Shown here in pieces: positions 2,536 through 29,258 of a stretch of DNA of 64,000 nucleotides (position 1 is the stretch's first letter; every line of letters starts with the position of its first letter). Origin of the DNA: Halanaerobium hydrogeniformans (GTDB lineage Bacteria; Bacillota; Halanaerobiia; Halanaerobiales; Halanaerobiaceae); NCBI RefSeq assembly GCF_000166415.1, contig NC_014654.1:248001-312000 (forward strand), read 5' to 3'. The notes below the pieces were generated by a model. The model was not told the DNA's origin, did not search any database, and worked only from the letters and a program-made list of their open reading frames with translations. A program made the position numbers and the translations under genes.

Positions 2536-2577
2536 ATGGATTAAGTGAAAAATAAATGGAATTTAGCAGGTGAAATT

Positions 2578-5907: not shown

Positions 5908-6020
5908 TGAGGTTTGATGTGAAAATTAAATTATAATAATTATTTTGAAAAAATAGTTAAAAACTCATTAGAAAACATGGAGAATAACTTTAACAATTTT
6001 GATTTAAGGTGGGTGTTAAG

Positions 6021-8207: not shown

Positions 8208-8208
8208 T

Positions 8209-8922
8209 ATGTACGCTAAACGTTTAGAAGAATTAAAGAAATATTTGAATTATGACAAGAAATTAAAACATAATAAGGGTAAAAAAGTAAACCTTTTTCC
8301 TTTTACAACGAGAAATCCTGAAAGGGCTAAATTTAAAAAAGGTTTTGATGGTGTGACTGGAGAGTTTTGTCGTTTAATAACTGATAAGAAACTCGAAGAT
8401 GATTATTCTATAAAATCATCTATTAAGAAAATGGTAGATAACGAAAATTTAGATATCGATGATGGATTGGAAAAAAAGTTCGAGAACATGTTACTCGAAT
8501 ATGTTTATCCCGAAGGAGAGCTTGAGATTTTATCGCCTCAGCTTTTCTCTTATCTACCTTTGAGCACTGGTAATGAAAGCAAAGGGGAGACAGATATAGC
8601 TTTATTCATACGAGATGTTCTCTGGGAAGAAAAAGATGAAATCAAAAATGTTATATTGAACTCTGAACCGGATATTGTGCTTACAAAATTTTTTATTCAA
8701 AATTTTGACCTATTAAAAGATAACAAAGAAAAGAAGAAAAAATATGACAAAAAACTTGATCATATTTCAGATCTTTTCATGGAAGATTTTCAATATTTAT
8801 TGAAAGATGAGGATTATTTTATCGATAATTTCAACCGACTTTTATCATATTACTATTTTTATTATATAACCCAACTTTATTTGAACCTTAAAAAAGAATC
8901 CGAGGAGAAAAAACATGAAATC
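8209..8922 (+). pseudogene. dptG: dptG, 5' part (interrupted by IS3 element)
   Basis: Start ATG at 8209 with AAGGAG 7 bases upstream, one base after the dptF stop. Codons run to 8922 and end KKHEI; an IS3-family element follows. The same six bases (GAAATC) recur at 10332-10337 and lead in frame into the rest of the protein. Removing the element plus one copy of the six bases gives an uninterrupted protein of about 454 residues, the usual DptG size. DptG is a component of the phosphorothioation-dependent restriction complex with no recognised catalytic motif. As it stands the gene should give a product of about 243 residues, truncated inside the element, so the pathway is probably inactive. 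Confidence 0.85.
8917..8922. repeat. Target-site duplication, left copy (GAAATC)
   Basis: GAAATC at 8917-8922 is repeated at 10332-10337, on either side of the IS3 element. In both places it encodes Glu-Ile in the dptG frame. This is a clean mark of a fairly recent insertion. It also defines the element ends at 8923 and 10331. Confidence 0.85.
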
Positions 8923-8991
8923 GGTTCAACCCCCTAAATATGGAAAATATGTTTGTTAAGCTCGCTCATTCTTAGTTTCTCATTTTTTGAT

Positions 8992-9950
8992 TTAGGCGAG
9001 TACTGGTTCAGCAACTATTTTTTCTGCTTTAGCCAGTTTATAAAATTTTGCTGGAGGCATATCATTAAGACTGCCATGACGGTATCTGTTGTTATAATAA
9101 TTCATATACTCACTGTACTTTTTTATAGGCGTCAATAAAACTACTGAATTCATTAATTGAATAACAATCTTTTTCTAAAACCGAATGAAATGATTCTATA
9201 TGAGCATTCATATTAGGTGTTCTAACTGGAATTCTCTGATGCTCTACCCCCAGTTTTTCACAGGTGTCTCCAAATAATTTAGAGACAAATTGTGGTCCAT
9301 TATCTGTTCTAATTTTAGGCAAATTCATGCCTTTATACAGCTTTCTTTTATTTAAAGCAGCCTTTAATACCCTGCAGGTATCTTTAGCTTTACAGCTTAG
9401 TCCCAGGTGATAATCTATAACAGTCTTATCAAAGACATCAATTACTGACATCTGGAAAAAGAACTGATCTGTTCCATTTATGTAGCCGTATTTTAAATCC
9501 ATCTGCCAGAGTTGATTTGGTTCTGTAATTTCTTCCTGTTTTGCAATCTTTTAGGTCTAAATTTTTGATTTTTCTTTGCGATCTTAATATATCCAGTTCT
9601 TTGCATAACCTGTATACTTTTTTCTTATTTATTTTCAAGTTATAGTCTTCTTTTAAACAGACTGTAAGTTTCCTGTAACCATAAGGGAAGCCATCTCCTG
9701 CAACCAGTTCTAAGAGCCATTCTTTAATCTGTTCATCAGATATTTTTTCACCTGATTCAGTTAGAGAATACCCAGGGACAGGTCTTCCTTGAGGATTATT
9801 GGAATTGCTGCTATTAGTACTTTCACTCTCAGTTTTTCTATTTATATTACTGTAGTAAGTGGAAGAATTAAGCCCAACAAAGTCTAAAACAATAGAGATT
9901 TTTATACCCTTTATTTATCCACTTTGATGCAATCTGAACTTTGAGGGCTA
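8992..9950 (-). pseudogene. IS3-family orfB transposase, frameshifted (copy 1)
   Basis: Same protein as orfB at 27750-28710: an rve integrase core with D (MDLKYG), D (RTDNGPQF) and E (HIESFHS). Here it is broken. Two one-base losses in A-runs near 9545-9565 shift the frame just before the first catalytic Asp, and a one-base gain near 9115 shifts it again near the C-terminus. The middle piece, 9110-9502, is still readable. All three changes are short indels, two of them in homopolymers. Confidence 0.85.
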
Positions 9951-10259
9951 TCGGGGGTTTACTTTATCTCTCAACTCCCTTAAAATCGCTAATTCTAATT
10001 CTTTTTCTGCTACAATTTTTCTGAGCTTATCATTTTCATCGCTCATTTTACTTAATCTATTTTCTATCTCTTTCATTTGCTTTTTTTCATCTTTAGGAAG
10101 AGATCTAACTGATCCTGTTTCTTTAGCTTTTTTGACCCAGCTGTAAACAGTATGCTTAGAAATATTATGTCGTCTTGCTACAAGAGCTGTGTTACCTATT
10201 TCGCGACATTCTTTTACAATTTGTTCTTTAGTTTCATCGGAATATTTTCTGTTTGCCAT
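9948..10259 (-). CDS. IS3-family orfA, HTH transposase subunit (copy 1)
   Basis: 103 residues from the ATG at 10259, with AAGGGGG upstream. It has an N-terminal helix-turn-helix (KYSDETKEQIVKEC; NISKHTVYSWVKKAK) followed by a coiled-coil/leucine-zipper segment (ENRLSKMSDENDKLRKIVAEKE). OrfA binds the element ends, and fusion to OrfB by -1 frameshifting makes the active transposase. It differs from the copy at 27443 by Arg for Lys in the zipper. Confidence 0.9.
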   Translation of the reverse strand: MANRKYSDETKEQIVKECREIGNTALVARRHNISKHTVYSWVKKAKETGSVRSLPKDEKKQMKEIENRLSKMSDENDKLRKIVAEKELELAILRELRDKVNPR

Positions 10260-10331
10260 TGGTGTTTCCCCCTTGTAATTAGAGTATATCACTTTCAAAC
10301 TTTTTCTCCAATTCTGTTAGGGGGCTATATA

Positions 10332-10988
10332 GAAATCTATTATATTCTTAATTGGGAATCGGCAAGCAAAAAGAGGAAGTCATATGAACATGGATACACA
10401 AAATTAATCAAATCGGGATCAGATAAATTATTATTATGGATGTATGCATTAGAGCATTTGAATTTTTTGTTCGATGAGGAAGGTAAGACCTTTTATGAAT
10501 TGAGGAATCTTTTTTATGAGATGTCTGAGGATGTTCAAAAAGAATTATTGGAAACCGTTAAAGCTTGGATTTTTGCATATAGAAAGAAAAGAGGTTTAGA
10601 TAAGAAAACTTTAGCAGATGACTATGAAGGACTGGAAAATGCGCTTATAGATTCTTTAGGTGAGGTGCACGAAAACCCTAAACTAAGCGGTACCCAATCG
10701 AGATATTTTCTGCCGTTCGACGAAATAGGTAAAAGATTCTTTTTAAAAAGCAGAGGACCTTTATCTTATGTTGGTAATATAACGCAAGACTTCCTTTTGT
10801 TTTTGACTACCATATGTGTCAAAGATAAAAGGATAAAAATTAAAGAACTTTTTCTAAGGTATGAAGAAAGGGGTATTTATTTGGACAGATATTCTAAACA
10901 TGAAGTAATAGATTTTTTGAATAAGATAAACGTATTAGACAAAAAAAGTGATAGTGGTGATGCCCAATATGTTAAACCAATCTTATAA
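10332..10988 (+). pseudogene. dptG: dptG, 3' part
   Basis: Continuation of dptG after the IS3 element, starting with the duplicated GAAATC (Glu-Ile) and reading IYYILNWESAS onward to a TAA at 10986-10988. It supplies the last 216 residues. It is cut off from its own start by the insertion; internal Met codons (for example in MYALEHLNF) have no convincing ribosome sites. The dptH start lies inside its last codons, so translation of dptH was probably coupled to dptG. Confidence 0.85.
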
Positions 10989-11280
10989 GCAACAATTTTA
11001 TGAATATTTGATCGAGAAAACTTTCGAAAGTTTTGAGAATAATCTAGGTAGTGGTGAGAGATATTATATACAATTCGAAGAGAAAGACGATGTAAAAAGT
11101 TTTTATCAGACCTTATGTGAAAATGATAGAGCGAAAGATTTCGTATATGAACATGAGCATGATGGGAAATCTTATGAGGTTTATACCACAAAATCGATCG
11201 ATTTAAACGGAAAAAAGCTTATTATAGCTGCCACCGTTGATGGTATAACTCCCAATTATTTGATAATCTTAAGAAATATG
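10969..11280 (+). pseudogene. dptH: dptH, 5' part (interrupted by second IS3-family element)
   Basis: I place the start at ATG 10969 (MLNQSYKQQF), 20 bases inside the end of dptG, because GTGGTG lies about 9 bases ahead; an ATG at 10960 is too close to it. About 104 codons run to ...ITPNYLIILRNM, then an IS element interrupts. The reading frame resumes near 12479. Family knowledge: DptH is the large ATPase of the phosphorothioation-dependent restriction system. The element boundary is known only to about 10 bases, so I cannot show a clean target duplication here. Confidence 0.8.
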
Positions 11281-12480
11281 TGGATTGTCAACCCTTTTTA
11301 CAACAATTTTTTATCGAACATTAAATATCTATATTCAACAGGTGTTAGGTAATCTAATGACCCGTGGATTCTGTGGTTATTATACCAGTTAACATAGTCA
11401 AATAGCTCATATTCCAGCTCTTGAAAACTATTAAAGATTCTATCATAAGCAAATTCAGTCTTAACTACTTTGAAGGCTGCTTCTGCAACTGCATTATCAT
11501 AAGGACAGCCTTTATTGCTTAAAGAACGCTCAATATCGAAGTTGTCTAAAATATCATCGATTGCTTTATTTTTAAATTCATTACCTCTGTCAGTATGTAA
11601 AATATTAATTTGATCCAGTGGTCTTTTAATACTTTTAAAAGCCTCAGTTACTAATTCAGCATTTTTCTTTTTGCCTGCTGCATAACCAACAAATTCGCGG
11701 TTAAAGAGGTCAATTATCAGGCAGATATAGTTCCATTTGCCCTTTACATTAACATAGGTTAGGTCACTGACAACAACATCTAGAGCTTCTTTTTTATCAA
11801 ATTCTCTGTTTACAACATTAGCTATTTTATCTTCATTACAGCTTGGAGAATGGACTTTGTATTGCTTTTTAGTGTAAGTGGAAACCAGATCATATTTTTT
11901 CATTATTTTACCTATTCTGCGTCTGGATACCTGATAGCCTTTTTTAGCTAGTTTTCTTTTGATTTTTCTGGTTCCATAATGAGTTTTATTTTCTTTAAAG
12001 ATTCTAATTATTTCACTTTCCAGTTCAATGTTAACCTGTTTTTTCTTAGGGGTATAATAGATCATACCCCTTGATATATTGAGTGCTCTGCACATGGCGC
12101 TAATACTGTATTTATCCCTGTTTGCCTTAATGACTGCTACTTTCGTCCCATTATCAGCGCCGCTTGTCTTTAAAATATCATTCTCCATTTTAAGCTGCTT
12201 GTTTTCTTTTTGTAATTTAATTAATTCTTTTTCTTTATCAGATCTATTATCTTTAGCGCTGAATGACCCTGAGTTATTATAGTCTTTTATCCATTTATGA
12301 AGTGTGGACCTTGCCATTCCATATTCATTGAGTATTTCAGTTTGATTTTTACCATTATTGGCCAGAGCAACAACCTTTCTTTTGATTTCTTCAGGATATT
12401 TTGTAGGCATGATATTTTCCTCCATTTTAGTTTGTTATTATCTTATTATATCATGTCCGAGAAAAAACTGTTTAATTAAT
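11281..12480 (-). mobile_element. IS3-family element inside dptH (about 1.2 kb)
   Basis: dptH coding stops near 11280 and resumes near 12479; between them lies one transposase gene on the minus strand. The ends show only weak inverted similarity (a T-run preceded by CAACCC on the left and, inverted, by AAACAG on the right). I could not identify a direct repeat at the junctions. It is a different IS3 subgroup from the copies at 8923 and 27371. Confidence 0.75.
11298..12410 (-). CDS. IS3-family transposase, orfA-orfB in one frame
   Basis: 370 residues from the ATG at 12410, chosen because GGAGG lies 8 bases upstream; an ATG at 12425 has none. The N-terminal 90 residues are OrfA-like (helix-turn-helix STLHKWIKDY, then the coiled coil KLQKENKQLKMENDIL). 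HTH_21 (HYGTRKIKRKL) and the rve core follow: D in VVSDLTYV, D in LHTDRGNEF, E in AVAEAAFKVVK. In most IS3 elements these two parts need a programmed -1 frameshift; here they are joined without one. It looks intact, so this copy may be mobile. Confidence 0.9.
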   Translation of the reverse strand: MPTKYPEEIKRKVVALANNGKNQTEILNEYGMARSTLHKWIKDYNNSGSFSAKDNRSDKEKELIKLQKENKQLKMENDILKTSGADNGTKVAVIKANRDKYSISAMCRALNISRGMIYYTPKKKQVNIELESEIIRIFKENKTHYGTRKIKRKLAKKGYQVSRRRIGKIMKKYDLVSTYTKKQYKVHSPSCNEDKIANVVNREFDKKEALDVVVSDLTYVNVKGKWNYICLIIDLFNREFVGYAAGKKKNAELVTEAFKSIKRPLDQINILHTDRGNEFKNKAIDDILDNFDIERSLSNKGCPYDNAVAEAAFKVVKTEFAYDRIFNSFQELEYELFDYVNWYNNHRIHGSLDYLTPVEYRYLMFDKKLL

Positions 12481-15400
12481 TATACCCGATCCAATGCTTT
12501 ATGAGGACCATGATAAATTCGAGGATGCCGCTATATTATTCGTATTCAACGAGGAGGTAGACAGCATACTAGGTGGAGCAAAAGATCTTCTGGATGAGGG
12601 ACAACCCCTATACTATGGTAGCATTTACGAGAATTTAGTAGAGGATATGGCAGAATCATCTTTAAAAAAACATGAGGAAGAGATATTGAAATTCCATATG
12701 GAGAATATTTCGGTAAAGAACCAGGGTAAAGGGTTCATTTGGGATCTTGAGGAGGTATTATCTTTCATACAAAAAGGGAATATCGAAAATATCGAATATC
12801 AAATTTTCGATATTTTTCCAGATCATGATTTATCAGGATTCCCTCCGGCCAAGATGAAAGAACGTCTGATAGATAATAACAAGATTTATGAAACGGTAGA
12901 ATCTATAAAGAAGAATAGAAATTCAGATGAGGAGTTAGCAGATAAATTTGATTCGGATGGTGCGGAAAAGTTATCAGGTGATGATTGGAAATTGAGCAAC
13001 TACGGTGATTTGAAAAAGTCATTGGATAACAAAAATAATTTTGAGCCTCTGGTTTATCTTGGCTTGGATGATAAAAGACTTCATGGAGATTTAGATATTT
13101 GGGAAAAACCAGGTAGCCAAACAAAGGCGGGACAAAGAAAAAGACATATAGTGGTTTTCAATAAAGCCGGTTTGAAAAACTATACGCTGGAGTTTGAATT
13201 CGATCAATATTTAGGAAAAGAGTTCATTGCCCCTAGAAGTGAAGATGTTATAGAAACAAAGGGAGGTAAGCGTTTATATTTTGAAATCGAAGAAGCGGAT
13301 GAACCAAAATTCATGAGCGCTATTTATAGGCATAAAGGTAAAACCCATTCAACTTATAAATTTTATGTTGCTAATTTACCAATTTCTGAAGAATCGTTAA
13401 GAGATATAAAGACTGATTATAGAATTAAAGCTTCGAATAGAAATGAATATATCGAATTGGAAGATAAATATGACGGCTTCAAGATCCCTTTAGATTATTC
13501 TGTTGTTAGTAAGAATGAAGGGGTTGAAATCATAGAAGAAGATGCTTCTTTTATAGATTTAAACAAAGAATTTTGGGAGGGTGACGAATTTCGATTTGAT
13601 CTTACGATAGATGGTCATCAGGTACCATTTCTGGTAAAAGATGAGGATAAAAAAATCGTTCCTAAACCATCCAAATGGATATGGAAAAAGAAGAGGGAGG
13701 AAAGTTCTCATTTCGAGTTTATTGATGGGAAGGTTAGGTTCCAAAACCAGGAATTTTCATTATACTCTGAATTCAAGAAATATATCCAATATGAAAAGTA
13801 TATGATAGATCAAAATATCATATATGGATCGCTTAGAGATCAAAAAATTTATGGTGAAGATCTTGAACTGCCGAATGAGGTCAAAGAAGGTTTTTTTAGG
13901 ATAACAGATTATTATAAAGAAAATGAATTGATTCCTAGCTTGGCATATATGGATGATAGTTTGAAAGAACTGGTTATAGACTTTATAAAGATCTTTAACA
14001 AAAGAATTAACGATATAGCGGAAGGATCTATTTTGCAAAATAAAGAAAAAAACCTTTTCAAAATAGGTACAATCGAGACAAATAATAAAGTCTTATTTAC
14101 ACCCTTGCACCCTTTGAACCTGATATATCAGATCAAGGTAAACGATTATTTAGATGGTGAGATAATAAGTTCTAAAATATTGGACCAATTGAATCCCATG
14201 AATCTTATCCCATATATGGTCGATGGTGAAAGGAAGATGAAACCTGTAAATCAAAACGATGCAAAAGAATGGATCATATTCGAAGATATCCAGAACCTAA
14301 AGAATGAATATTATCATGATTATATATCATTGATTATAGATGAAAAGATAGATCAATTCTTTAAACATTTTAATTATATATTCAAAGGCAAGGTCCGTCC
14401 AACGATTAAGATAAATATCATAAATGTTGAGAATGATTTAAATATTCTGGTGGGAATCATCCAAAACTTATTGAAACAATTGGAGCATAAAAATATAAAT
14501 AAGGTGACCAAATTTGAGATTAAATTTTATGATGAAGATAATAAAAATTCTTTCGACAAATTATTTTCCTTGGATACCATCGAAGAAATAGAAAAGTTCC
14601 TTGGTTTAAAATTAGATGTAAAAACCTACAGTAAATACGATGTGATCTTGAACATAAGAAAATCTATCAAGTATTATTTTGTGGAAAATAATAATTTTAA
14701 ATATGCTCACATTTCTTTTTATGAATTTAAAGAAAAGAATAAATTCGCAGCTTATGGTATGGATAACTTGGAATCTGGATTATCCATGGAAGGTCTTAAA
14801 GCATCGATAAAGTCACGTTTTGAAGATGATGATTATAGGATGGGTTTCGGTCTGAAAAACTATGATTATAAAAATAATCTATTGGTAGAGACGGCAAAAA
14901 ATTTGAACGAACTTACGAGAAATTTGGATAATCAGGCCAAAGATCCTTATCACAAAAATGAAAGCCTGGTTTCGATATATTCGCTCGAAAAGGAAGACCG
15001 GATCAAGAAAGCTTTGGATGAATCTATGTGGGTCACCTTCATAAATCCAATCGTCGACATAGATTTTTTTCAGAATATAGATGATAAGACAATTGTATTA
15101 CATTACAGTGATCAGTATACAGATTTTGATAGGTTGGATGCTATCACGATCACCAATAAATCTAAACAATATAAAGATATTATAGGGTCATTTTTGGATG
15201 ATTATGAAGGTGTGGAATATAATGATGAAACTTTGGAAGATATAATCAACATCTTTAATTCTATTAATGGAGATTGGCTGTTGAACATTTTAAGGGAAAA
15301 AAATGATTATAAAAGATCTAAGTTGAGCGAGATAGTTGCGATAAAATATATGCTCGCTTTTCTTGAAGAAGATAACATATTATGGGTTCCTATTTCTTTG

Positions 15401-17386
15401 GAAGAGATATTAAGGATAGCCGGTATAGCAGGGATAAAGAAGAAAGATGGATTGTTTTCCGCAAGCAATTTAAATGTAAAAGGAGAAATGTCCGATGATC
15501 TTTTGTTCCTAGGTATAGATACCTATGAAGATAACTTAAAATTATATATTTATCCCGTTGAGGTAAAGGTTGGCACCAATAAAATCAGCAAAGGTAAAAA
15601 CCAAGTTGGCAAAATATATGATGTGTTTCGTCAAAACCTTAGTTTTAAACTAGATTCAGGAAGAAAAGTTTTTATAAACCAGTTTTATAGAAACTTTTTC
15701 ATGCAACTATACGTCTCGAACGTAAAAAATATGGTAAGGCTAGGTATTTTTGATAAAAATAAACTTGATGTATTGAACGATGTAAAGAATAGATTGGCTA
15801 GTGATGATTATATCATAAGTGATGAGCTGGAAGGTTTGATCGGTAAAGGTACCGTGATTTCATTCGAAAGCCAGCTAAATTTCAGCGCCTGCAACCTCGA
15901 AGGGGATATGAACATTTTAAGATTCAGTGAAAAACATATTTATACAGGTTTAAGCATCAAAATTGAAGATATTAGGGGACGCTTCGTCGAAGATGTCTAC
16001 GATATAAGATCCGAGGATGTATTATCTAATAAATTAGCAAGGACGTCCTCTAAGGGGAAAGATACGAACCGGGAAGGGAATGATATAGAAGATGAAGAAT
16101 TTAACACTGAAACGGATGGGGGCGTAAAAAAACTTGGGGCTGAAGATTCGGGGAATGATGAATTGCCTGGTGAAGATGAAGAGGAACTTAAAACCGGAGC
16201 ATCTGTTGAAGGAGATGACGATGAAGACCAGGTTGAAGAATCCAATAAAAAATCAGATATTACAAACCTTTCCGATATCCGCGTTTATTTGGGGGCGGTT
16301 AAAGGCTCAAAAAAGAAGATATATTGGGAATTTGGCCATCCCAAACTTCCGAATAGGCATCTTCTTATCTCGGGGAAATCTGGACAAGGTAAAACTTATT
16401 TGATTCAGACCATCTTGTACGAATTATCGAAGAACAACATTCCTAGTTTGGTAATCGATTATACAGATGGTTTCAAGTCAGCGCAACTTGAAGAACATTT
16501 CAAGTCAAGAGTTGGTGACAGATTGAAACAATATTATCTCATCAAAGATAAGATAGGAATAAATCCTTTCAAGAGGAACGATATCGTTTTAGATGAAGAG
16601 ATGACTTTGAAAGAAGAACCTTTCGATGTAGCCGAGCGCATAAAGTCGGTAATATCTGCGATATATCCAACCTTGGGTATACAACAATTGAACAGCATAT
16701 ATAATGCGGTCCAAATCGGTATAGAGGAACATGGAGATAAGATGGATTTCGATATACTAAGAGAGAATCTGGAAAAACAAGAGTCGAGATATTCTAAAAC
16801 GGCCCTTTCGCAATTGAATTCATTCTTTAACAAACATCCTTTTAAATTCGATGAAGATTTCAGCTGGAAAAAAATAGATCAAAATGATGGGAACATCAGC
16901 ATAATTCAATTGATGGGATTTCCCCCGGACATTCAACTCTTGATAAGCGAGTTTCTGTTGTGGGATCTTTGGTATTACAAAAAACAACATGGTTCCGAAG
17001 CTAATCCTTTGACTTTGATCATAGATGAGGCACAAAACCTTGATCATAGTTCCAAATCTCCCACAGCAAAGATACTTACCGAGGGGAGAAAATTTGGGTT
17101 TTCTGGTATTTTTTCAACCCAGTTTTTACAAGGACAACTGAACAAGGATGAGATTTCAAGGTTACAGATGGCCAGTCAAAAGATATACTTTAAGCCTCCT
17201 GATAATGAGATCAATTCGATTGCTTCAGATTTCGAAGATAAAAATAGTTGGAAACAAGAACTTAAGAATTTGATAAAGGGAAGATGTGTGAACAAAGGAC
17301 ATGTGTTCGATGAAAGGTCTGACAGTTTACTGGGGGTTAGGAGCATGGTCGTCGACATAGAATCTTTCAAAGGGCGACAGGATTGA
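12479..17386 (+). pseudogene. dptH: dptH, 3' part: large HerA/FtsK-like ATPase with nuclease-like segment
   Basis: About 1,635 codons, open from the element to TGA at 17386; an ATG at 12494 could start a truncated product. C-terminal P-loop GKSGQGKT (nt 16372) and Walker B LTLIIDEAQN (nt 17011) identify a HerA/FtsK-like DNA-pumping ATPase. Before it, VEVKVG (nt 15557) follows an Asp-bearing strand (LGIDTY) and looks like a PD-(D/E)xK nuclease core, which would fit a restriction subunit. A strongly acidic linker (nt 16069-16245) separates the two. Together with the 5' part the intact protein would have about 1,740 residues, normal for DptH. The nuclease assignment is inference. Confidence 0.82.
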
Positions 17387-17461
17387 TATTATATATTGGC
17401 TCCGCGAGGTTATAGCTTCTTCGTGGAGCTTAAATAAACTTATATGAATGTGGTGTTAAAG

Positions 17462-18061
17462 TTGAAGATTTCTGATATTTTGTTGGAATGGTATGTAAAT
17501 AATAAAAGAGACTATCCTTGGCGTGAAACGGACAATAGCTTTCACGTTCTGATTGCAGAACTTTTTTTGCAGAGGACGAGGAGCGATAATGTCGTAAAGG
17601 TTTATCGTGAGTTTATAGATAATTTTGGTTCTCCTAAAGATATTTTAGAAGCAGATAAAGAAGAAATCATGGGGCATCTTTCACATCTGGGTTTGCAGAA
17701 TAGGCGATATGAGGTTCTTAAAAATATTTGTTTGGCATATGAGGAAAAGGACCAAGAAAATTTTTTCACAAAAGATGTTTTATCGAAAATAGATGGTTTG
17801 GGTGACTACATAGTTAATGCGACCTTGTGTTTCGGTGAAGAAAAAAGGTTACCCATAGTAGATACCAATACATCCCGTATAGTGAAACGATTTTATGGGA
17901 TTGATAAACACGAAGTCGAGAGCAAACTGGTAGAGATTCTACCGAATGATAGATATGTTGAGTTCAACTATGCATTGTTAGATTTCGCTTCCCTGATATG
18001 TAAAGCTTTATCACCCAAATGTTCTGAGTGTTTGATAAGTTCTGATTGCTCATATCCTTAA
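17462..18061 (+). CDS. MIG-like T:G mismatch DNA glycosylase
   Basis: About 199 residues from TTG 17462 (ATG 17444 is the alternative; neither has a strong ribosome site). HhH-GPD family: RDYPWRETDN near the start, helix-hairpin-helix GLGDYIVNA, catalytic Asp in VDTNTSRI, and an iron-sulfur loop C-x6-C-x2-C-x5-C at the end. At the position where endonuclease III has Lys and MutY has Ser (G-V-G-R-K/S), this protein has Tyr (GLGDY). This matches MIG-type thymine-DNA glycosylases, which repair T:G mismatches left by deamination of 5-methylcytosine. The C5-cytosine methyltransferase nearby makes that role very plausible. Adenine glycosylase MutY is the less likely alternative. Confidence 0.82.
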   Translation: MKISDILLEWYVNNKRDYPWRETDNSFHVLIAELFLQRTRSDNVVKVYREFIDNFGSPKDILEADKEEIMGHLSHLGLQNRRYEVLKNICLAYEEKDQENFFTKDVLSKIDGLGDYIVNATLCFGEEKRLPIVDTNTSRIVKRFYGIDKHEVESKLVEILPNDRYVEFNYALLDFASLICKALSPKCSECLISSDCSYP

Positions 18062-18083
18062 TAGTTAATGAGGTGTATAAAAT

Positions 18084-19514
18084 ATGGTTTATTATGATAT
18101 AAGTTCCTCCGAATCCATAGAAAAACATGCGAAAAAACTCGAAGGTAGTAGCATAAATGATCTTTATTCGAGATACGGCTGTTTGAACGAAAAGAACAAA
18201 GGGCGTTTGGGTTTATTGGTCGAAAGGTTACATTTTGGATTCGAAAATAATTCCGATGAGAGGCCTGATTTTCCTAAAGCTGGTGATAACGGTGTCGAAC
18301 TGAAGGTGGTTCCGATCAAGAAGATCAGGGAAAACAAGTCTTCTGATATGATCATTAAAAAAGAAGGGTTATCCGTTAAAGAAAGATTGGTTATAAAAAA
18401 AATAGATTATTTCAAGTTGGCAGAGGAAGATTGGGATGATAATACTTTGCTTCCCAAGATAACCTTGTTATTATTGATGTTCTATATGTATAAGGAAGGA
18501 CTTAATGTTGTTGATTATAAATTTTTGTTGGTCAGTTTATGGACCATACCTGAGAAAGACATGAATATAATTAGAGATGATTGGAAGAAGATAAAACGCA
18601 AAATAGAGAAAGGAGATGCTCACAAAATATCTGAAGGAGATACTCTATATTTGGGTGCCTGCACGAAAGCAGCATCTTCTTCTGATAGAACAGCCCAACC
18701 TTATTCTGAACACGAAGCAAAACCGAGAGCGTTTTCTCTTAAAAGAAGCTATATGGATGAAGTGTTTAATAGTTTGTATAAAAAAAGAAGTGATAGGAAA
18801 GAAAAGGCGCTTTTGGATACAGAAATGTCATTAAAAGAAAAATTGCAAGATATATTTGAACCTTATATTGGAATGAGGGTTGATGAGATAGAAAAACAAC
18901 TCGAAGTTGACTTAGGTACTTCAAAACAATACCTAAATATTTTGGCTAATGAAATAATGGGAGTAGATTCAGAAGATAACATAGAGGAATTCAATAAAGC
19001 GGGAATCAAGATTAAGACTATGCGTCTGAATAGAAAAGGTATACCTATCGAGAGTCTGTCCTTACCGACATTCGACTATATAGAACTGAAAGAATCGGAT
19101 TGGTTGCATTCCGAATTGTACGAAAGGTTAGAAAATACGAAATATTTTTTCGTGATATTCGATAAAATAGGAGTACAGAATACTAAGAAAAATTTAAAGC
19201 TTAAAAAAGTTAAATTGTGGAATATGCCTGCAGAAGATATAGAAAAAGCTCGACCTGTTTGGGAAGAAATGCATGATATAATGGTGAAAGGTAAAGACGG
19301 GAAGGGGATAATAAAAAAGGTAACGAAAAACGGTATTAGACGGACTAATTTTCCCGCCAAAAGCCATAGATTAAGCGAGGTTATACATGTCAGACCCCAT
19401 GCTAAAAACAAAAAAGACACATCTCCACTACCCGACACATTCGATATGCAAGGATACACTAAACATTCCTTTTGGTTCAACAACGACTATATTGCCGAAC
19501 AAATAAATGCATGA
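18084..19514 (+). CDS. Sau3AI/MutH-family type II restriction endonuclease (probable GATC)
   Basis: 476 residues, ATG with AATGAGGTG upstream, 22 bases after the glycosylase gene. The N-terminal half carries the MutH/Sau3AI catalytic signature: RPDF with Asp 62, then VELK with Glu 72 and Lys 74. A second, diverged half-repeat starts near residue 250, as in Sau3AI, where a second MutH-like domain serves as allosteric DNA-binding domain. Length equals the family norm (about 490). Sau3AI cuts at GATC, so GATC is the expected target. It converges with the methyltransferase gene, the two separated by a bidirectional terminator. Specificity is an inference from the family. Confidence 0.87.
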   Translation: MVYYDISSSESIEKHAKKLEGSSINDLYSRYGCLNEKNKGRLGLLVERLHFGFENNSDERPDFPKAGDNGVELKVVPIKKIRENKSSDMIIKKEGLSVKERLVIKKIDYFKLAEEDWDDNTLLPKITLLLLMFYMYKEGLNVVDYKFLLVSLWTIPEKDMNIIRDDWKKIKRKIEKGDAHKISEGDTLYLGACTKAASSSDRTAQPYSEHEAKPRAFSLKRSYMDEVFNSLYKKRSDRKEKALLDTEMSLKEKLQDIFEPYIGMRVDEIEKQLEVDLGTSKQYLNILANEIMGVDSEDNIEEFNKAGIKIKTMRLNRKGIPIESLSLPTFDYIELKESDWLHSELYERLENTKYFFVIFDKIGVQNTKKNLKLKKVKLWNMPAEDIEKARPVWEEMHDIMVKGKDGKGIIKKVTKNGIRRTNFPAKSHRLSEVIHVRPHAKNKKDTSPLPDTFDMQGYTKHSFWFNNDYIAEQINA

Positions 19515-19608
19515 TATTTTTAAATGAGCTAATTTAATGATACCTAATAAGTAAATCATTAATTCTTGAATAATTTGAATGCAAATGGAAAAATATATAT
19601 GGACAAAT

Positions 19609-19642
19609 AATATAAAGAAGGGGTTATTACCTTCTTTATATT
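19609..19642. terminator. Bidirectional terminator between endonuclease and methyltransferase
   Basis: Perfect 12-bp inverted repeat, AATATAAAGAAG at 19609-19620 and CTTCTTTATATT at 19631-19642. It lies between the convergent genes and touches the methyltransferase stop codon. It can serve both strands. Confidence 0.75.
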
Positions 19643-20861
19643 ATTCATTTTCGATAATTTGTTCAAGTTTTTCTCCCATCAATTCGATTAAACCAACAAC
19701 CAATGCATTACCCATCGCAAAGTATCTAAATGAGTGGGACATCGTTTCGGTGTTCGTCCAACCATCGGGGAAGCAGTTTAACCTTTCACACTCTTTAGGT
19801 GTTAATTTTCTTAATTTGCCCGTATCTTCATCTTCAATTATATGTGTGCTCCGATTTTTAGATCTTTCGCTGGTCAATATGGTCCTTGCAGGTTCATCAA
19901 CCGAATCCGGAAATGGGATAGCCCCTTCTCTGAATGTATATTCATGACCATTTTTGGCTACCCTTTTTTCGGCTTTAGCACCTTTCATGTATTCCCAATC
20001 TTCAAGTTCTTTATCAGATAAATAATATCTTTTTGGCACATTAGATTCCAGGATATCCTTAATCTTAGTTTTTTTTGCCTCGCCCACCTCTTTTGGATCA
20101 ACTGCACTTGTATATATCTCACCATCTTTTTGAAATCCAGCTATTTCAAAATCGAACTCAAATTTTTTTGTAGCATCTACAAGATTTTCTGGAACCTTTG
20201 TAGAATTCATCTCGTATTTTTCATTTTCGACTATGGGAAAGATAGAAGAAAAAAATCCATCTTTAGTGATTATCTCCATACCATTGTTTTCGAAATATAT
20301 TTTGGCATAATTGGTGTTCTTCCTGGTTGCAAAAATGAAAACTCGTCTTCTTTTTTGTGGGAAGCCATAATCGGCAGCATTTATTACACGCCATTCAACC
20401 GTATAATCAAGGTTGTTTAAAGAAGAAAGCATAATACCAAAATCCCTACCTCGCTGATCGGAAGGTGATCTCAATAATCTATTTACATTTTCAAGCAATA
20501 CGAAGGGCGGTTTTTTAGCTTTTAAAATCCTATGAATATCCCACCACAATACCCCTTTTTTGCCTCGGATACCTTCAGCATTAGTCCTTGCAACGGAATA
20601 ATCCTGACAGGGGAATCCACCTACCAAAAGGTTATGATCAGGGATGACCGAGGTATCTACCTCGCTTATATCTGTATTACTAAAAAGGTTGATAGCCTTA
20701 TCTTTGCCGAAATTTTCTATGTAGCATTCGTAAGCCCATTGTGATTTTCTTGTTGGTTCCCATTGGTTCATCCAAACGGTTTTCCATTCTTCTGAGCTTT
20801 TTTCAAGACCCAACCTGAAACCACCAACTCCTGCAAAAAGTTCACAAACTGTTTTTTTCAT
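19641..20861 (-). CDS. C5-cytosine DNA methyltransferase (probable GATC, M.Sau3AI-like)
   Basis: 406 residues. All hallmark motifs are present in order: SAM-binding ELFAGVGGFRLGLE at residues 7-20, the catalytic loop GGFPCQDYS with Cys 85, LLENV with Glu 124, the QKRRRVF motif, and a C-terminal GNALVV. The domain between residues 200 and 340 would be the target-recognition region. It methylates cytosine at carbon 5 to protect against the partner endonuclease, presumably giving GATm5C. It is transcribed towards the endonuclease gene and thus from its own promoter, which would allow the mark to be laid before the nuclease appears. Confidence 0.9.
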   Translation of the reverse strand: MKKTVCELFAGVGGFRLGLEKSSEEWKTVWMNQWEPTRKSQWAYECYIENFGKDKAINLFSNTDISEVDTSVIPDHNLLVGGFPCQDYSVARTNAEGIRGKKGVLWWDIHRILKAKKPPFVLLENVNRLLRSPSDQRGRDFGIMLSSLNNLDYTVEWRVINAADYGFPQKRRRVFIFATRKNTNYAKIYFENNGMEIITKDGFFSSIFPIVENEKYEMNSTKVPENLVDATKKFEFDFEIAGFQKDGEIYTSAVDPKEVGEAKKTKIKDILESNVPKRYYLSDKELEDWEYMKGAKAEKRVAKNGHEYTFREGAIPFPDSVDEPARTILTSERSKNRSTHIIEDEDTGKLRKLTPKECERLNCFPDGWTNTETMSHSFRYFAMGNALVVGLIELMGEKLEQIIENE

Positions 20862-21868: not shown

Positions 21869-22010
21869 GAATAAAATTACAAAAAAATGGTCTTGAAAAC
21901 ATAAAAAAGAAATGGTATAATAAATTTAATGGTAAAAAAAGTAAATAAAAGAATAAAATACTAAATAAGGAGGTGCGGTGTTTTTAATATAATAAGGAAG
22001 GGTGTTTATT

Positions 22011-23084
22011 ATGAAATATAATAAAGTTCAGTCAAATTTTTGGATAAGTAACAAAGTTATAAGATGGGACAAAAACACAATATTTATTGCCCTTTATATT
22101 TTAACCAATCAACATCGCAGTTCTGAAGGTATTTATAGATTACCAAAATCATATGTTTCTGAAGATACAAATTTTACAACTCAAGAAGTTGAAGAAGCCT
22201 TTGAAGAACTTATTGAATCTGATTTCGTAAGGTATGATATTGAGACTTCAGTAATAATGATAACTAAAGCTTTAAAATATCAATCAATAAATAATCCTAA
22301 TCATCAAAAAGCAGCATTGAAAATATTAAAAGCTCTACCAACAAGTTATTTATTGATCGATTTTTTAGAACAAGCTGATAAATACTGCAGATTATTCAAG
22401 GAGTTTCTATTAGAATTCTTGGAAGATGAACTTTTGTCTGAAGCACAAAATAAGAAAGATAATATCTTTAAAAGCGAAGACAATGGTTTATCCGATGGTA
22501 TTAATAATGCCATTACTGATCCACCATCACTAACTCCAGCACTAACAACACAAACACAAAAACAAAAACTATCACAAGAACGTTGCCAAAAAAAATTTTT
22601 GGCTAATTCAAATACTGAAATTGATGAAAATGATCGCTTTTATGATGTGAAATTAAAATCTAACGACCATCTTTATAAGAAAAATCAAAAAAGTCAAGCA
22701 TTAGAGTTAACTAAATATTTGATAGAGAAGATAAAAGATAATAACCATAGGGCGAGAGTTCCAGAAATTGACCTCAATAATGATTTATTCATTAAATGGA
22801 TAAAAGAAATGGAAAAACTTAATAATATCGGCCCTGTTGGAGCTAAAAAAGATGATAACAAAGGTTACAGCTGGCAAGAGATTAAAAAGATAATAGATTT
22901 TAGTCAGGATGATGAGTTTTGGAGTTCAAACATTTTAAGTGCTAAAAAATTAAGAAAACAGGTTATTAAACTTGAAAACCAGATGAACAAAAGCGGGAAA
23001 TCTGAGTCAACGAAAAGAATGGATATGCTTGCCGAGTTATATGTCGAATACTTAAACGAGGAGCAAAATGATGACGAAGAATAA
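22011..23084 (+). CDS. Phage-type replication protein (replisome organizer / DnaD-like)
   Basis: 357 residues from ATG 22011, which has AAGGAAGG 10 bases upstream. The first 110 residues look like the winged-helix domain of phage replisome organizers (FWISNKVIRWDKNTIFIALYILTNQ in part; GIYRLPKSYVSE). A Gln/Ser/Thr-rich low-complexity linker lies near residues 170-200, and a helical DnaD-like C-terminal part follows. Such proteins bind the phage origin and recruit the helicase loader. The next gene overlaps it by 17 bases and encodes a probable helicase loader, the usual gene order in Firmicute prophages. No integrase or capsid gene is nearby, so this is a remnant or part of a satellite. Confidence 0.65.
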   Translation: MKYNKVQSNFWISNKVIRWDKNTIFIALYILTNQHRSSEGIYRLPKSYVSEDTNFTTQEVEEAFEELIESDFVRYDIETSVIMITKALKYQSINNPNHQKAALKILKALPTSYLLIDFLEQADKYCRLFKEFLLEFLEDELLSEAQNKKDNIFKSEDNGLSDGINNAITDPPSLTPALTTQTQKQKLSQERCQKKFLANSNTEIDENDRFYDVKLKSNDHLYKKNQKSQALELTKYLIEKIKDNNHRARVPEIDLNNDLFIKWIKEMEKLNNIGPVGAKKDDNKGYSWQEIKKIIDFSQDDEFWSSNILSAKKLRKQVIKLENQMNKSGKSESTKRMDMLAELYVEYLNEEQNDDEE

Positions 23085-23607
23085 TATAATTGAACTATTA
23101 AGTTATTTAAGCAATTGTTATTCTGGAAGAATGAAATTTCCTAAGAGCGATAAAAGAGAAAATAAAATGATGGTAGAAGTTTGGTATGATTTTTTGAAAT
23201 CTTATGACCGTGAAATAATAGATCTTGCAGCAAAAAAATTAGTTATTAATAATTCTAAATGGCCTCCATCCGTAGGAGAGATAATAAAAGAAGTCAAGAA
23301 CCTTCAAAAAGCTCCAGAAGAAAAGCTGAGCCCAGGTATGGCTTGGAGTTTAGTCTTAAGTGCCGTCAGAAAATATGGATATTATAATTCTAAAGAGGGT
23401 ATGGAATCCTTGCCTCCTAAAGTTAGAGAAACTGTAGAACACTATGGAGGATTTGCTTCAATCTGTCATAGTGAGGAGAATAATGTATATGTTAAAAATC
23501 AGTTCTTTAGACTTTTTAAAGAAGTCAATCGACACAATAGAGATTTAGAGTACCTTCCTCCGGGATTGAAAAAAGAATTATTTTTGATTTCCAGTGATAT
23601 GGGTTGA
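23068..23607 (+). CDS. Phage helicase loader-like protein (G39P-type)
   Basis: 179 residues; GAGGAG precedes ATG 23068, and the start overlaps the previous gene. The N-terminal half has the pattern of the G39P helicase-loader/inhibitor domain: MVEVWYDFLKSYDREIIDLAAKKL followed by WPPSVGEIIKEVKNL, as in phage and Firmicute proteins that load the DnaB-type helicase. The C-terminal half (GMAWSLVLSAVRKYGYY) resembles other replication-related phage proteins. It works presumably with the replisome organizer encoded just upstream. The gene pair is intact, so it could still be expressed. Confidence 0.6.
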   Translation: MMTKNNIIELLSYLSNCYSGRMKFPKSDKRENKMMVEVWYDFLKSYDREIIDLAAKKLVINNSKWPPSVGEIIKEVKNLQKAPEEKLSPGMAWSLVLSAVRKYGYYNSKEGMESLPPKVRETVEHYGGFASICHSEENNVYVKNQFFRLFKEVNRHNRDLEYLPPGLKKELFLISSDMG

Positions 23608-26202: not shown

Positions 26203-27369
26203 TTAATTGTCAAATATCTTTTGATACACATCAAGATCTCTTACTGCTGGTTTAGCAGCAAGTTTGGCCTTATCTTTTTCATTTAAGGCTATATTATCAG
26301 CTACCAGTAAAATATCATCATTTTTAGACTTGAATTTTTCTTTATCGTAATAACTGATGATATCCCTAAAATCACTGGCACTGTAGAGTTTATTACCTAT
26401 ACAGTATTCTAATGCTTTTGTGATAGTTTCAGAAACTTTATCTTCTAAAGCTTTTTCTATTACCAGCAGTTGATCCCTGATATATCGCTGTTTTTCTTTT
26501 CTGATTATGGATAAAAATTTATCTGCTCTTTTGTGTTCAGGGAAGAGAAAAGTTATCTTTTCTATCAGTTTGTCTATATTATCAGATTTCTTTCTGCCGT
26601 GATCTCTATTTTTAGAGAGTTTACCTTTAGTTCTTATTATTTTATGTTCTGCCAGTTTAGCTGTACTTTCAAAATCATATATCAGGTATTTATCACTGTC
26701 TTCAAGCACTTTAACATAGCTTTCAGGCCCTTGATAGGTGCCTAAAGGAACAGAATATCTGTTACCTTTTATCGGGATAGTATTGTCTTTTCTCACCTGA
26801 TAAGTTATACTTAAGTCAGAAGAATTATTTTTAATTTTTTCGGATACTGGCTTCAGGTATTTCTTTTCGACGGTGAATACCTGAGCTGGTATTTTTTTCG
26901 TTGTGCCATGTATTTTCCCATTAGCACGGCGTTCAAGCCACTTAAGACAATCCTCATTCCACTTTTCTAAATTGATAAATGTTCTATGAGCTGCAAAATT
27001 ATTTTTTACATAGCCAACAACATTTTCAATACGGCCTTTAGATTCAGGATCAGCTGCCCTACACATATATACCTTGAATTTTCTTTCAAGCCTGTATGAT
27101 GCAAATTGATGAGTGTAGATTAGATCACCATAGTTTTCACTGTACAAGATTAAACTGTCCTGATCATATACTGCCTCATTAGGCATACCTTCAAAGTATT
27201 CAAATACATTTTCATGAGCTGCTACTACATCAGCTGTAGTTAATGGTCTGTCAAACCATTCTACATACTTGAAGCGAGAATTAGAAAGAACAAAGGCAAT
27301 GAGATAGAGCTTAACTCTGGTGATTTTATCTGATTTGTAGACCCATTTTTCACCCATATCAACCTGCAT
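26203..27369 (-). pseudogene. istA: IS21 transposase IstA, N-terminus lost
   Basis: 388 residues remain of roughly 500. The first catalytic Asp (QVDMGEKW) lies right at the break. The second (NEAVYDQDSL) and the Glu region (DPESKGRIENVVGYVKNN) are present. The missing part is the DNA-binding helix-turn-helix that would precede it. The break coincides with the start of IS3 copy 2 at 27371, and no istA N-terminal sequence appears on the other side of that element. Confidence 0.85.
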
Positions 27370-27442
27370 CTATATAGCCCCCTAACAGAATTGGAGAAAA
27401 AGTTTGAAAGTGATATACTCTAATTACAAGGGGGAAACACCA

Positions 27443-27754
27443 ATGGCAAACAGAAAATATTCCGATGAAACTAAAGAACAAATTGTAAAAGAATGTCGCG
27501 AAATAGGTAACACAGCTCTTGTAGCAAGACGACATAATATTTCTAAGCATACTGTTTACAGCTGGGTCAAAAAAGCTAAAGAAACAGGATCAGTTAGATC
27601 TCTTCCTAAAGATGAAAAAAAGCAAATGAAAGAGATAGAAAATAGATTAAGTAAAATGAGCGATGAAAATGATAAGCTCAAAAAAATTGTAGCAGAAAAA
27701 GAATTAGAATTAGCGATTTTAAGGGAGTTGAGAGATAAAGTAAACCCCCGATAG
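27443..27754 (+). CDS. IS3-family orfA (copy 2)
   Basis: 103 residues from ATG 27443, with AAGGGGG upstream. Helix-turn-helix plus leucine-zipper protein, as copy 1, with Lys in place of Arg in the zipper. It ends in KVNPR followed by TAG. Just before the stop the sequence AAACCCCC could serve as a slippery site: orfB is open in the -1 frame across this point, which fits the usual IS3 way of making the OrfAB transposase. Confidence 0.92.
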   Translation: MANRKYSDETKEQIVKECREIGNTALVARRHNISKHTVYSWVKKAKETGSVRSLPKDEKKQMKEIENRLSKMSDENDKLKKIVAEKELELAILRELRDKVNPR

Positions 27755-28710
27755 CCCTCAAAGTTCAGATTGCATCAAAGTGGATAAATAAAGGGTATAA
27801 AATCTCTATTGTTTTAGACTTTGTTGGGCTTAATTCTTCCACTTACTACAGTAATATAAATAGAAAAACTGAGAGTGAAAGTACTAATAGCAGCAATTCC
27901 AATAATCCTCAAGGAAGACCTGTCCCTGGGTATTCTCTAACTGAATCAGGTGAAAAAATATCTGATGAACAGATTAAAGAATGGCTCTTAGAACTGGTTG
28001 CAGGAGATGGCTTCCCTTATGGTTACAGGAAACTTACAGTCTGTTTAAAAGAAGACTATAACTTGAAAATAAATAAGAAAAAAGTATACAGGTTATGCAA
28101 AGAACTGGATATATTAAGATCGCAAAGAAAAATCAAAAAATTTAGACCTAAAAAGATTGCAAAACAGGAAGAAATTACAGAACCAAATCAACTCTGGCAG
28201 ATGGATTTAAAATACGGCTACATAAATGGAACAGATCAGTTCTTTTTCCAGATGTCAGTAATTGATGTCTTTGATAAGACTGTTATAGATTATCACCTGG
28301 GACTAAGCTGTAAAGCTAAAGATACCTGCAGGGTATTAAAGGCTGCTTTAAATAAAAGAAAGCTGTATAAAGGCATGAATTTGCCTAAAATTAGAACAGA
28401 TAATGGACCACAATTTGTCTCTAAATTATTTGGAGACACCTGTGAAAAACTGGGGGTAGAGCATCAGAGAATTCCAGTTAGAACACCTAATATGAATGCT
28501 CATATAGAATCATTTCATTCGGTTTTAGAAAAAGATTGTTATTCAATTAATGAATTCAGTAGTTTTATTGACGCCTATAAAAAAGTCAGTGAGTATATGA
28601 ATTATTATAACAACAGATACCGTCATGGCAGTCTTAATGATATGCCTCCAGCAAAATTTTATAAACTGGCTAAAGCAGAAAAAATAGTTGCTGAACCAGT
28701 ACTCGCCTAA
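27750..28710 (+). CDS. IS3-family orfB transposase (copy 2, intact)
   Basis: The frame is open from about 27750, inside the end of orfA, in the -1 frame, to TAA at 28710: about 320 codons. An internal ATG at 28063 exists, but the preceding codons (GYRKLTVCLKEDYNLKINKKK) belong to the HTH_21 region, so expression as an OrfAB fusion is likely. DDE core: D in QMDLKYG, D in RTDNGPQF, E in HIESFHS. Unlike copy 1 it carries no frameshift, so it could supply transposase for both copies. Confidence 0.88.
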
Positions 28711-28779
28711 ATCAAAAAATGAGAAACTAAGAATGAGCGAGCTTAACAAACATATTTTCCATATTTAGGGGGTTGAACC

Positions 28780-29258
28780 GATCTTTCTCTGTGAGTCATT
28801 GCTACTCTTAAATCTGCATATTCTTTTTCTGGCATATGCGGTATTGAATATCTACCATCTATTACAAGTTTGGCGATGACTTTAGCATCTTTTCTGTCAG
28901 TTTTAGTTGGTGAATTATCATCTAAAGACTTGCTCTTTTTGACATGAGCAGTATTTACAACTACTCTCATAAAGTTTGTCTTTCTTCTTAGATATTCTTC
29001 TAAAGGTAACCAGTAATGACCGGTTGGCTCCATTCCAACTATTACATCAGTTTTATTTTTCTTCTCACTTACTTTTTTTATCCAATTTAGAAGTTTCTTA
29101 AAACCAGCTTCATTGTTTTCAAAAAAGATTACTTTATCATATTCTATCCCTCTAAAATTGAAGGCTCTTGCTGCATGTTTATCCTTTGCGATATCCACTC
29201 CCACTACCAGTGTTGAAACTTTTACTTGCATAATCTTTTTGTTTTGAGTATAATTCAT
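28780..29258 (-). pseudogene. IS110-family transposase, C-terminal part lost
   Basis: About 160 residues remain; the start at 29258 has AAGGAGG 8 bases upstream. The N-terminal DEDD RuvC-like domain is complete: VGVDIAKDKH, GMEPTGHYW, KTDRKDAKVIAKL. The Ser-bearing Transposase_20 domain is missing, cut at MTHRERS by IS3 copy 2. IS110 elements use a bridge RNA made from their non-coding end; the upstream stretch to about 29350 keeps hairpin-forming sequence (AGATCAGAATGACCTCTGAT) and may be what is left of that region. Inactive as it stands. Confidence 0.85.

What the first reader, a model, noticed from the sequence alone, without database searches (positions are those of the whole stretch)
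17462..20861. GATC restriction-modification module with its own T:G repair glycosylase
A Sau3AI-like endonuclease, a C5-cytosine methyltransferase and a MIG-like glycosylase are adjacent. The glycosylase has Tyr at the residue that separates MIG (Tyr) from endonuclease III (Lys) and MutY (Ser). Methylated cytosines deaminate to T, and this enzyme would repair those mismatches. The combination is logical and known from few systems.
Basis: partly seen in the sequence, partly recalled or inferred. Interest (0 to 1): 0.52.

Follow-up and report, generated by a model that had tools for sequence, protein, structure and literature searches.

The report
GATC restriction system with MIG-type glycosylase
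A bacterium carries a DNA-cutting defence system for the sequence GATC together with a small enzyme that probably repairs the mutations this system's own DNA methylation causes; that kind of pairing is known and common, but its use with a GATC system looks rare.

Summary
Three intact genes lie together: an HhH-GPD glycosylase (17444-18061 +), a Sau3AI-family GATC endonuclease (18084-19514 +) and a C5-cytosine methyltransferase of the Sau3AI-linked type (19641-20861 -). Other evidence supports MIG anyway: the specificity pocket (Y, R, S, Y at MIG positions 27, 47, 50, 187), no MutY C-terminal domain, a place outside the MutY and Nth clades, and MIG (1kea) as nearest solved structure. Genome-wide, this is the only C5-methyltransferase, the glycosylase is the only non-Nth HhH-GPD protein found, and Vsr is absent. 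Elsewhere, MIG-pocket glycosylases sit by C5-methyltransferases in 27 of 29 loci (MutY-pocket: 0 of 19), once fused to one. Among 95 Sau3AI stretches none has a MIG-type glycosylase, but 14 have Vsr. Best reading: the repair slot of a GATm5C system, filled elsewhere sometimes by Vsr, is here filled by a MIG-type T/U:G glycosylase. Known kind of module; the pairing with a GATC system is new in what I searched. No biochemical specificity was tested.

The parts
17444..18061 (+).
18084..19514 (+). Sau3AI-family GATC restriction endonuclease, 476 aa; 22 bp after the glycosylase stop, same strand, GAGGTG before the ATG
19641..20861 (-). M.Sau3AI-type C5-cytosine methyltransferase, 406 aa, convergent with the endonuclease; predicted product GATm5C
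   Evidence: literature anchors
17398..17430 (+). hairpin (12 bp, -19.9 kcal/mol for 17387-17443) between the dptH remnant and the glycosylase; role unknown, not followed by a U run

Best explanation
This is a horizontally acquired Type II restriction-modification system for GATC that carries its own mismatch repair enzyme. Shown by sequence: the genes, their families, catalytic residues and linkage. Inferred: (1) the methyltransferase makes GATm5C and blocks the Sau3AI-like enzyme, which cuts unmodified GATC; (2) deamination of m5C in GATC leaves a T opposite G; (3) the glycosylase, a MIG-type thymine/uracil glycosylase without the lysine of a bifunctional lyase, removes that T; (4) the host's ordinary base excision repair restores C. 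It does the job that Vsr does beside some other Sau3AI systems. Whether it recognises GATC context or any T:G pair is unknown.
For: Nearest solved structure by sequence is MIG 1kea (109 bits; best MutY 79.6; best endonuclease III 55.1), also first by fold though tied with MutY (Z 23.4 against 23.1). Pocket residues at MIG F27/E42/R47/A50/Y126/D144/L187 are Y/E/R/S/Y/D/Y; the MutY residues L, Q, V, Q are absent (residue roles from passages of PMC2714593). Tree of 54 rows: MutY one clade (100/98), Nth one clade (100/100), window protein in neither. No C-terminal MutY domain (205 aa). Linkage: C5-methyltransferase in the fetched stretch for 27 of 29 MIG-pocket loci, 0 of 19 MutY-pocket, 0 of 1 Nth; one natural MTase-glycosylase fusion, L122. 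Own genome: one C5-methyltransferase, this one; two HhH-GPD matches, this and a Nth-like one; no Vsr. In the genus the MIG protein occurs only here: in the other 11 of 12 genomes only the short Nth-like match or none. 14 of 95 Sau3AI stretches carry Vsr, so GATC systems do take a T:G repair partner. GATm5C: MTase target domain 33-45% identical to seven methyltransferases taken from records with a Sau3AI-type endonuclease, including M. hyorhinis 37%, against 9-13% for four others; M. hyorhinis has a GATC-specific 5mC enzyme (passages of PMC4636357) and M. hominis DCM2 with a Sau3AI homolog gives GATmC (passages of PMC10305163).
Against: Position 187 is Tyr, not Leu as in MIG, and 50 is Ser, not Ala, so the pocket is not identical to a tested enzyme; the branch is long (1.96) and its place within the MIG grade is unresolved. 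No GATC depletion or GATT excess marks the genome: GATC observed/expected 0.91 in 400 kb of own genome against 1.01 in a congener, GATT 0.84 against 0.86, so in vivo methylation has no visible footprint. A congener (G007) has a C5-methyltransferase with neither a MIG-type protein nor Vsr, so such a partner is not obligatory. No other Sau3AI locus examined has a MIG-type glycosylase, so the partnership cannot be confirmed by conservation.
Confidence: 0.76

Rival explanations
1. The glycosylase is a truncated MutY-like adenine glycosylase (A:G or A:8-oxoG) that happens to sit beside the system.
For: Tyr at 126 is shared with MutY; best NCBIfam model is mutY at 113.9 bits; no separate MutY was seen in the genome.
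Against: mutY score far below the cut-off of 286.5; none of the four MutY pocket residues L22, Q42, V45, Q182 is present; lacks the MutY C-terminal domain; outside the MutY clade at 100/98; MIG-pocket proteins track C5-methyltransferases and MutY-pocket ones do not.
Confidence: 0.08
2. The glycosylase belongs to the dptFGH restriction locus directly upstream, 57 bp after the dptH stop, not to the GATC system.
For: Same strand, close spacing.
Against: None of four other DptFGH loci looked at has a glycosylase near it: none in L211/L212 by profile, none annotated in L213-L215. The Dpt locus here is broken by two insertion elements, whereas the glycosylase is intact and only 22 bp before the endonuclease.
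Confidence: 0.05
3. The glycosylase is an attacking enzyme that excises modified or mismatched bases from phage DNA, a second arm of defence rather than repair.
For: It lies in a defence island; PADLOC files its family under 'Type II nicking endonuclease'; base-excising restriction exists in another fold, PabI (passages of PMC4081073).
Against: Pocket of the MIG type and tight linkage to C5-methyltransferases; fused to a methyltransferase in L122.
Confidence: 0.06
4. The methyltransferase has another target than GATC, so the endonuclease and methyltransferase are not a pair.
For: Its target domain was not tested biochemically; no GATC footprint in the genome.
Against: 75 of 80 Sau3AI loci carry a strong relative of this methyltransferase; target domain similarity to Sau3AI-linked enzymes.
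Confidence: 0.05

Closest known systems
MIG (Mig.MthI) with the MthTI restriction-modification system on plasmid pFV1 of Methanothermobacter
   Same: HhH-GPD glycosylase of about 210-220 aa with Tyr/Asp catalytic residues beside a C5-methyltransferase and an endonuclease; nearest solved structure 1kea
   Different: pFV1 has an NgoPII-family endonuclease (GGCC specificity recalled), here a Sau3AI-family one; pocket residues 27, 50 and 187 differ
Sau3AI restriction-modification
   Same: endonuclease over the family cut-off, catalytic D...ExK, two MutH-like halves, cognate methyltransferase type
   Different: no MIG-type glycosylase in any of 95 other Sau3AI stretches
Vsr endonuclease with Dcm, and with some Sau3AI systems
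   Same: a T:G mismatch enzyme kept next to a C5-methyltransferase (L216; 14 of 95 Sau3AI stretches)
   Different: Vsr is an unrelated nicking endonuclease (PD-(D/E)XK-related, recalled; grouped so in a table note of PMC12898733); here a base-removing glycosylase does the job
MutY
   Same: fold, FeS cluster, Glu and Asp catalytic residues, and in most members the Tyr
   Different: pocket residues, no C-terminal domain, separate clade

Membership tests
MIG-type thymine/uracil glycosylase | HhH-GPD fold with [4Fe-4S] cysteines | tested here: met
MIG-type thymine/uracil glycosylase | catalytic Asp144 and Tyr126, no Lys (monofunctional) | tested here: met
   D140 and Y122
MIG-type thymine/uracil glycosylase | pocket unlike MutY at 27, 47, 50, 187 (F, R, A, L in MIG) | tested here: met
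   Y, R, S, Y: none is the MutY residue; only R is identical to MIG. Tyr at 187 also occurs in seven other methyltransferase-linked rows: L122, L140, L141, L142, L145, L146, L148
MIG-type thymine/uracil glycosylase | excises T or U opposite G | not testable with these tools
   needs purified enzyme
MutY | V45/Q182 pocket and C-terminal 8-oxoG domain | tested here: not met
   S47, Y176; protein ends after the FeS motif
Endonuclease III | catalytic Lys at 120 | tested here: not met
   Tyr
Sau3AI family endonuclease | curated NCBIfam score and active site | tested here: met
   435.7 over 300 bits; D62/E72/K74
GATm5C methyltransferase | C5 motifs and target domain of Sau3AI-linked enzymes | tested here: met
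   PCQ, ENV, motifs VIII and IX; target domain 33-45% identical
GATm5C methyltransferase | methylates C of GATC | not testable with these tools
   needs bisulfite or nanopore data

The most novel reading that the evidence does not exclude
The glycosylase is not (only) a repair enzyme but a second, base-excising arm of the GATC system that attacks phage DNA carrying substituted pyrimidines which Sau3AI-type cutting misses.
Probability: 0.06. Interest if true: 0.75.

Novelty: new member of a known kind. Interest (0 to 1): 0.36.

Why it matters
It shows two unrelated enzymes, Vsr and a MIG-type glycosylase, filling the same neighbourhood of GATC C5 systems, which makes 'methylation brings its own repair' testable as a general rule. 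It also corrects a tempting shortcut: Tyr at the catalytic position does not tell MIG from MutY; the pocket positions 27, 47, 50 and 187 and the methyltransferase linkage do better, and short proteins annotated MutY beside C5-methyltransferases are probably often T:G glycosylases (inference).

Tried and rejected
Tyr as sole discriminator: rejected. GATC depletion or GATT excess as proof of methylation: weak or no signal (the 64-kb window alone gives GATC 0.74, which I do not lean on). Single-sequence scan of genome contigs with the glycosylase found no relative; I used the second scan on the endonuclease alignment instead, so the count of 0 covers only the best 80 of 554 relatives, of which 58 have 3 kb or more on both sides. 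The only HhH-GPD protein near a Sau3AI gene (L059) is MutY with a NUDIX_4 domain. Fold comparison does not separate MIG from MutY (Z tied). Dpt membership of the glycosylase: rejected.

Selection and circularity: the seven methyltransferase queries were the window's own and those next to six of the MIG-pocket plasmid loci, so those six match themselves (they were also annotated as methyltransferases in their records). The phylum loci were picked by profile score and frame length, not by neighbours: of those, 15 fell in the MIG class (14 with a methyltransferase) and 19 in the MutY class (0). The MIG class is 'neither MutY nor Nth by rule'; L237 (no methyltransferase) and L100 have mixed residues. 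L148's methyltransferase match is weak (35 bits, at the edge of the stretch), and in L143, L144, L147 and L148 it lies 5-6 kb away. The 95 Sau3AI stretches include two from one plasmid (L012, L018). The 29 glycosylase loci scanned for Vsr are not the same 29 as: they include L138 and L139 (MutY-pocket) and L151 (Nth).

Full report
What is there. The window holds three intact genes: an HhH-GPD glycosylase (17444-18061 +), a Sau3AI-family endonuclease (18084-19514 +) and a C5-methyltransferase (19641-20861 -). The glycosylase ends 22 bp before the endonuclease start, which has a GAGGTG ahead of it, so the two are probably one transcript; the methyltransferase faces them. In the 75 of 80 Sau3AI loci with the methyltransferase, it is on the endonuclease's strand in 67, convergent (as here) in 6 and divergent in 2.

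The endonuclease and methyltransferase. The endonuclease scores 435.7 bits (cut-off 300) for the Sau3AI family, aligns over its length with solved Sau3AI 4pxg and has D62, E72 and K74. Of 19 plasmid records with a Sau3AI-type gene, 18 also carry one of the roughly 39-58% identical methyltransferases in the list. In 80 genome loci, 75 have such a methyltransferase. The target domain of the window methyltransferase is 33-45% identical to seven methyltransferases from records with a Sau3AI-type endonuclease and 9-13% to four other C5 enzymes. One of the seven comes from Mesomycoplasma hyorhinis, a species whose GATC-specific 5mC enzyme Mhy3 is described in passages of PMC4636357; that the fetched gene is Mhy3 is my inference, from its Sau3AI neighbour. 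Passages of PMC10305163 assign GATmC to M. hominis DCM2, an Mhy3 homolog with a Sau3AI homolog beside it. GATm5C is thus a good prediction, not a measurement.

The glycosylase. By sequence the nearest solved structure is MIG 1kea (109 bits), then Geobacillus-type MutY (79.6), then E. coli MutY (67.9) and endonuclease III (55.1). The predicted model (pLDDT 88.6) has 1kea first but tied with MutY. In an alignment of 54 proteins, 22 of 23 MutY-pocket rows also have Tyr; only E. coli has Ser, and PMC2714593 makes the same point for BsMutY (passages). Tyr therefore excludes endonuclease III only. Residues that paper discusses for base specificity do separate the groups: MutY rows have L or M, Q, V or I, Q or E at MIG positions 27, 47, 50 and 187; MIG-pocket rows have mostly F or Y, K/R/Q, A/S/G, and L/Y/W/F. 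The window protein has Y, R, S, Y. In a maximum-likelihood tree MutY is one clade (100/98), Nth another (100/100), and the window protein is in neither, on a long branch in an unresolved MIG grade.

Linkage. I fetched surroundings of MIG-pocket and MutY-pocket genes and searched them with the same queries. A C5-methyltransferase lay in the stretch for 27 of 29 MIG-pocket loci (22 within 2 kb), 0 of 19 MutY-pocket loci and 0 of 1 Nth locus. In L122 one 606-aa protein holds both domains. The genome of the window has a single C5-methyltransferase, this one, only two HhH-GPD matches, this one and a Nth-like protein, one UDG-family protein and no Vsr. Of the 12 genomes of the genus, only this one has the MIG-type gene, and of 61 genomes searched (own included) only this one has the Sau3AI-type gene: the module is recently acquired or sporadically kept. 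Against necessity, congener G007 has a C5-methyltransferase with neither a MIG-type gene nor Vsr.

What is unusual. In 95 Sau3AI stretches (80 genome loci, 5 viral, 4 from the phylum sample, 6 plasmid stretches of which two are one plasmid) no MIG-type glycosylase was found, but 14 carry Vsr. Of 29 glycosylase loci scanned for Vsr, 1 has it. So GATC systems sometimes keep a T:G repair partner, elsewhere Vsr; here it is a MIG-type glycosylase. This reading, a non-homologous replacement, is the best-supported explanation, at about 0.76; the weakest steps are the enzyme's actual substrate and whether methylation is active in the host, since GATC shows almost no depletion (0.91, against 1.01 in a congener) and GATT no excess.

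Known or new. R-M plus MIG-type glycosylase is known since pFV1 (record seen; the original papers are recalled, not read). I searched the held library for the combination and saw no paper in those listings on a glycosylase paired with a Sau3AI-type system; the listings cover open-licence papers only, and PADLOC already files the family with restriction systems. I therefore call it a new member of a known kind.

Noticed in passing
6009-17386: dptF, dptG and dptH relatives: dptG is split (8143-8937 and 10152-10988) and dptH is split (10948-11352 and 12494-17386) by two IS3-like elements; no DndC over the cut-off exists in the genome, so this is a broken, orphan phosphorothioation-dependent restriction locus.
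   Followed up: partly
8920-10333 and 27369-28782: Two copies of one IS3-like element, 99.6% identical over 1.4 kb, so the element that broke dptG moved recently.
   Followed up: yes
L122 (G187), 266-2083 +: A 606-aa natural fusion of a C5-methyltransferase and a MIG-type glycosylase.
   Followed up: partly
L012/L018 (Paraclostridium plasmid NZ_CP079741): A DndB-annotated gene lies between a Sau3AI-type endonuclease and its methyltransferase; here too Dnd/Dpt relatives neighbour a Sau3AI system.
   Followed up: no
Sau3AI loci such as L020, L052, L077, L096: Vsr genes next to Sau3AI-type systems, 14 of 95 stretches.
   Followed up: partly
2545-4983: Helicase with a PLD nuclease domain, PADLOC type IV restriction-like, at the edge of the same defence island.
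   Followed up: no
22002-23607: Phage replication genes (a G39P-type helicase loader) without the rest of a phage nearby.
   Followed up: no
54010-63999: Very long secreted-looking repeat protein, over 3330 aa and running off the window, with near-identical repeated blocks.
   Followed up: no
17398-17430: Strong 12-bp hairpin between dptH and the glycosylase, unique in the window and not followed by a U run.
   Followed up: partly
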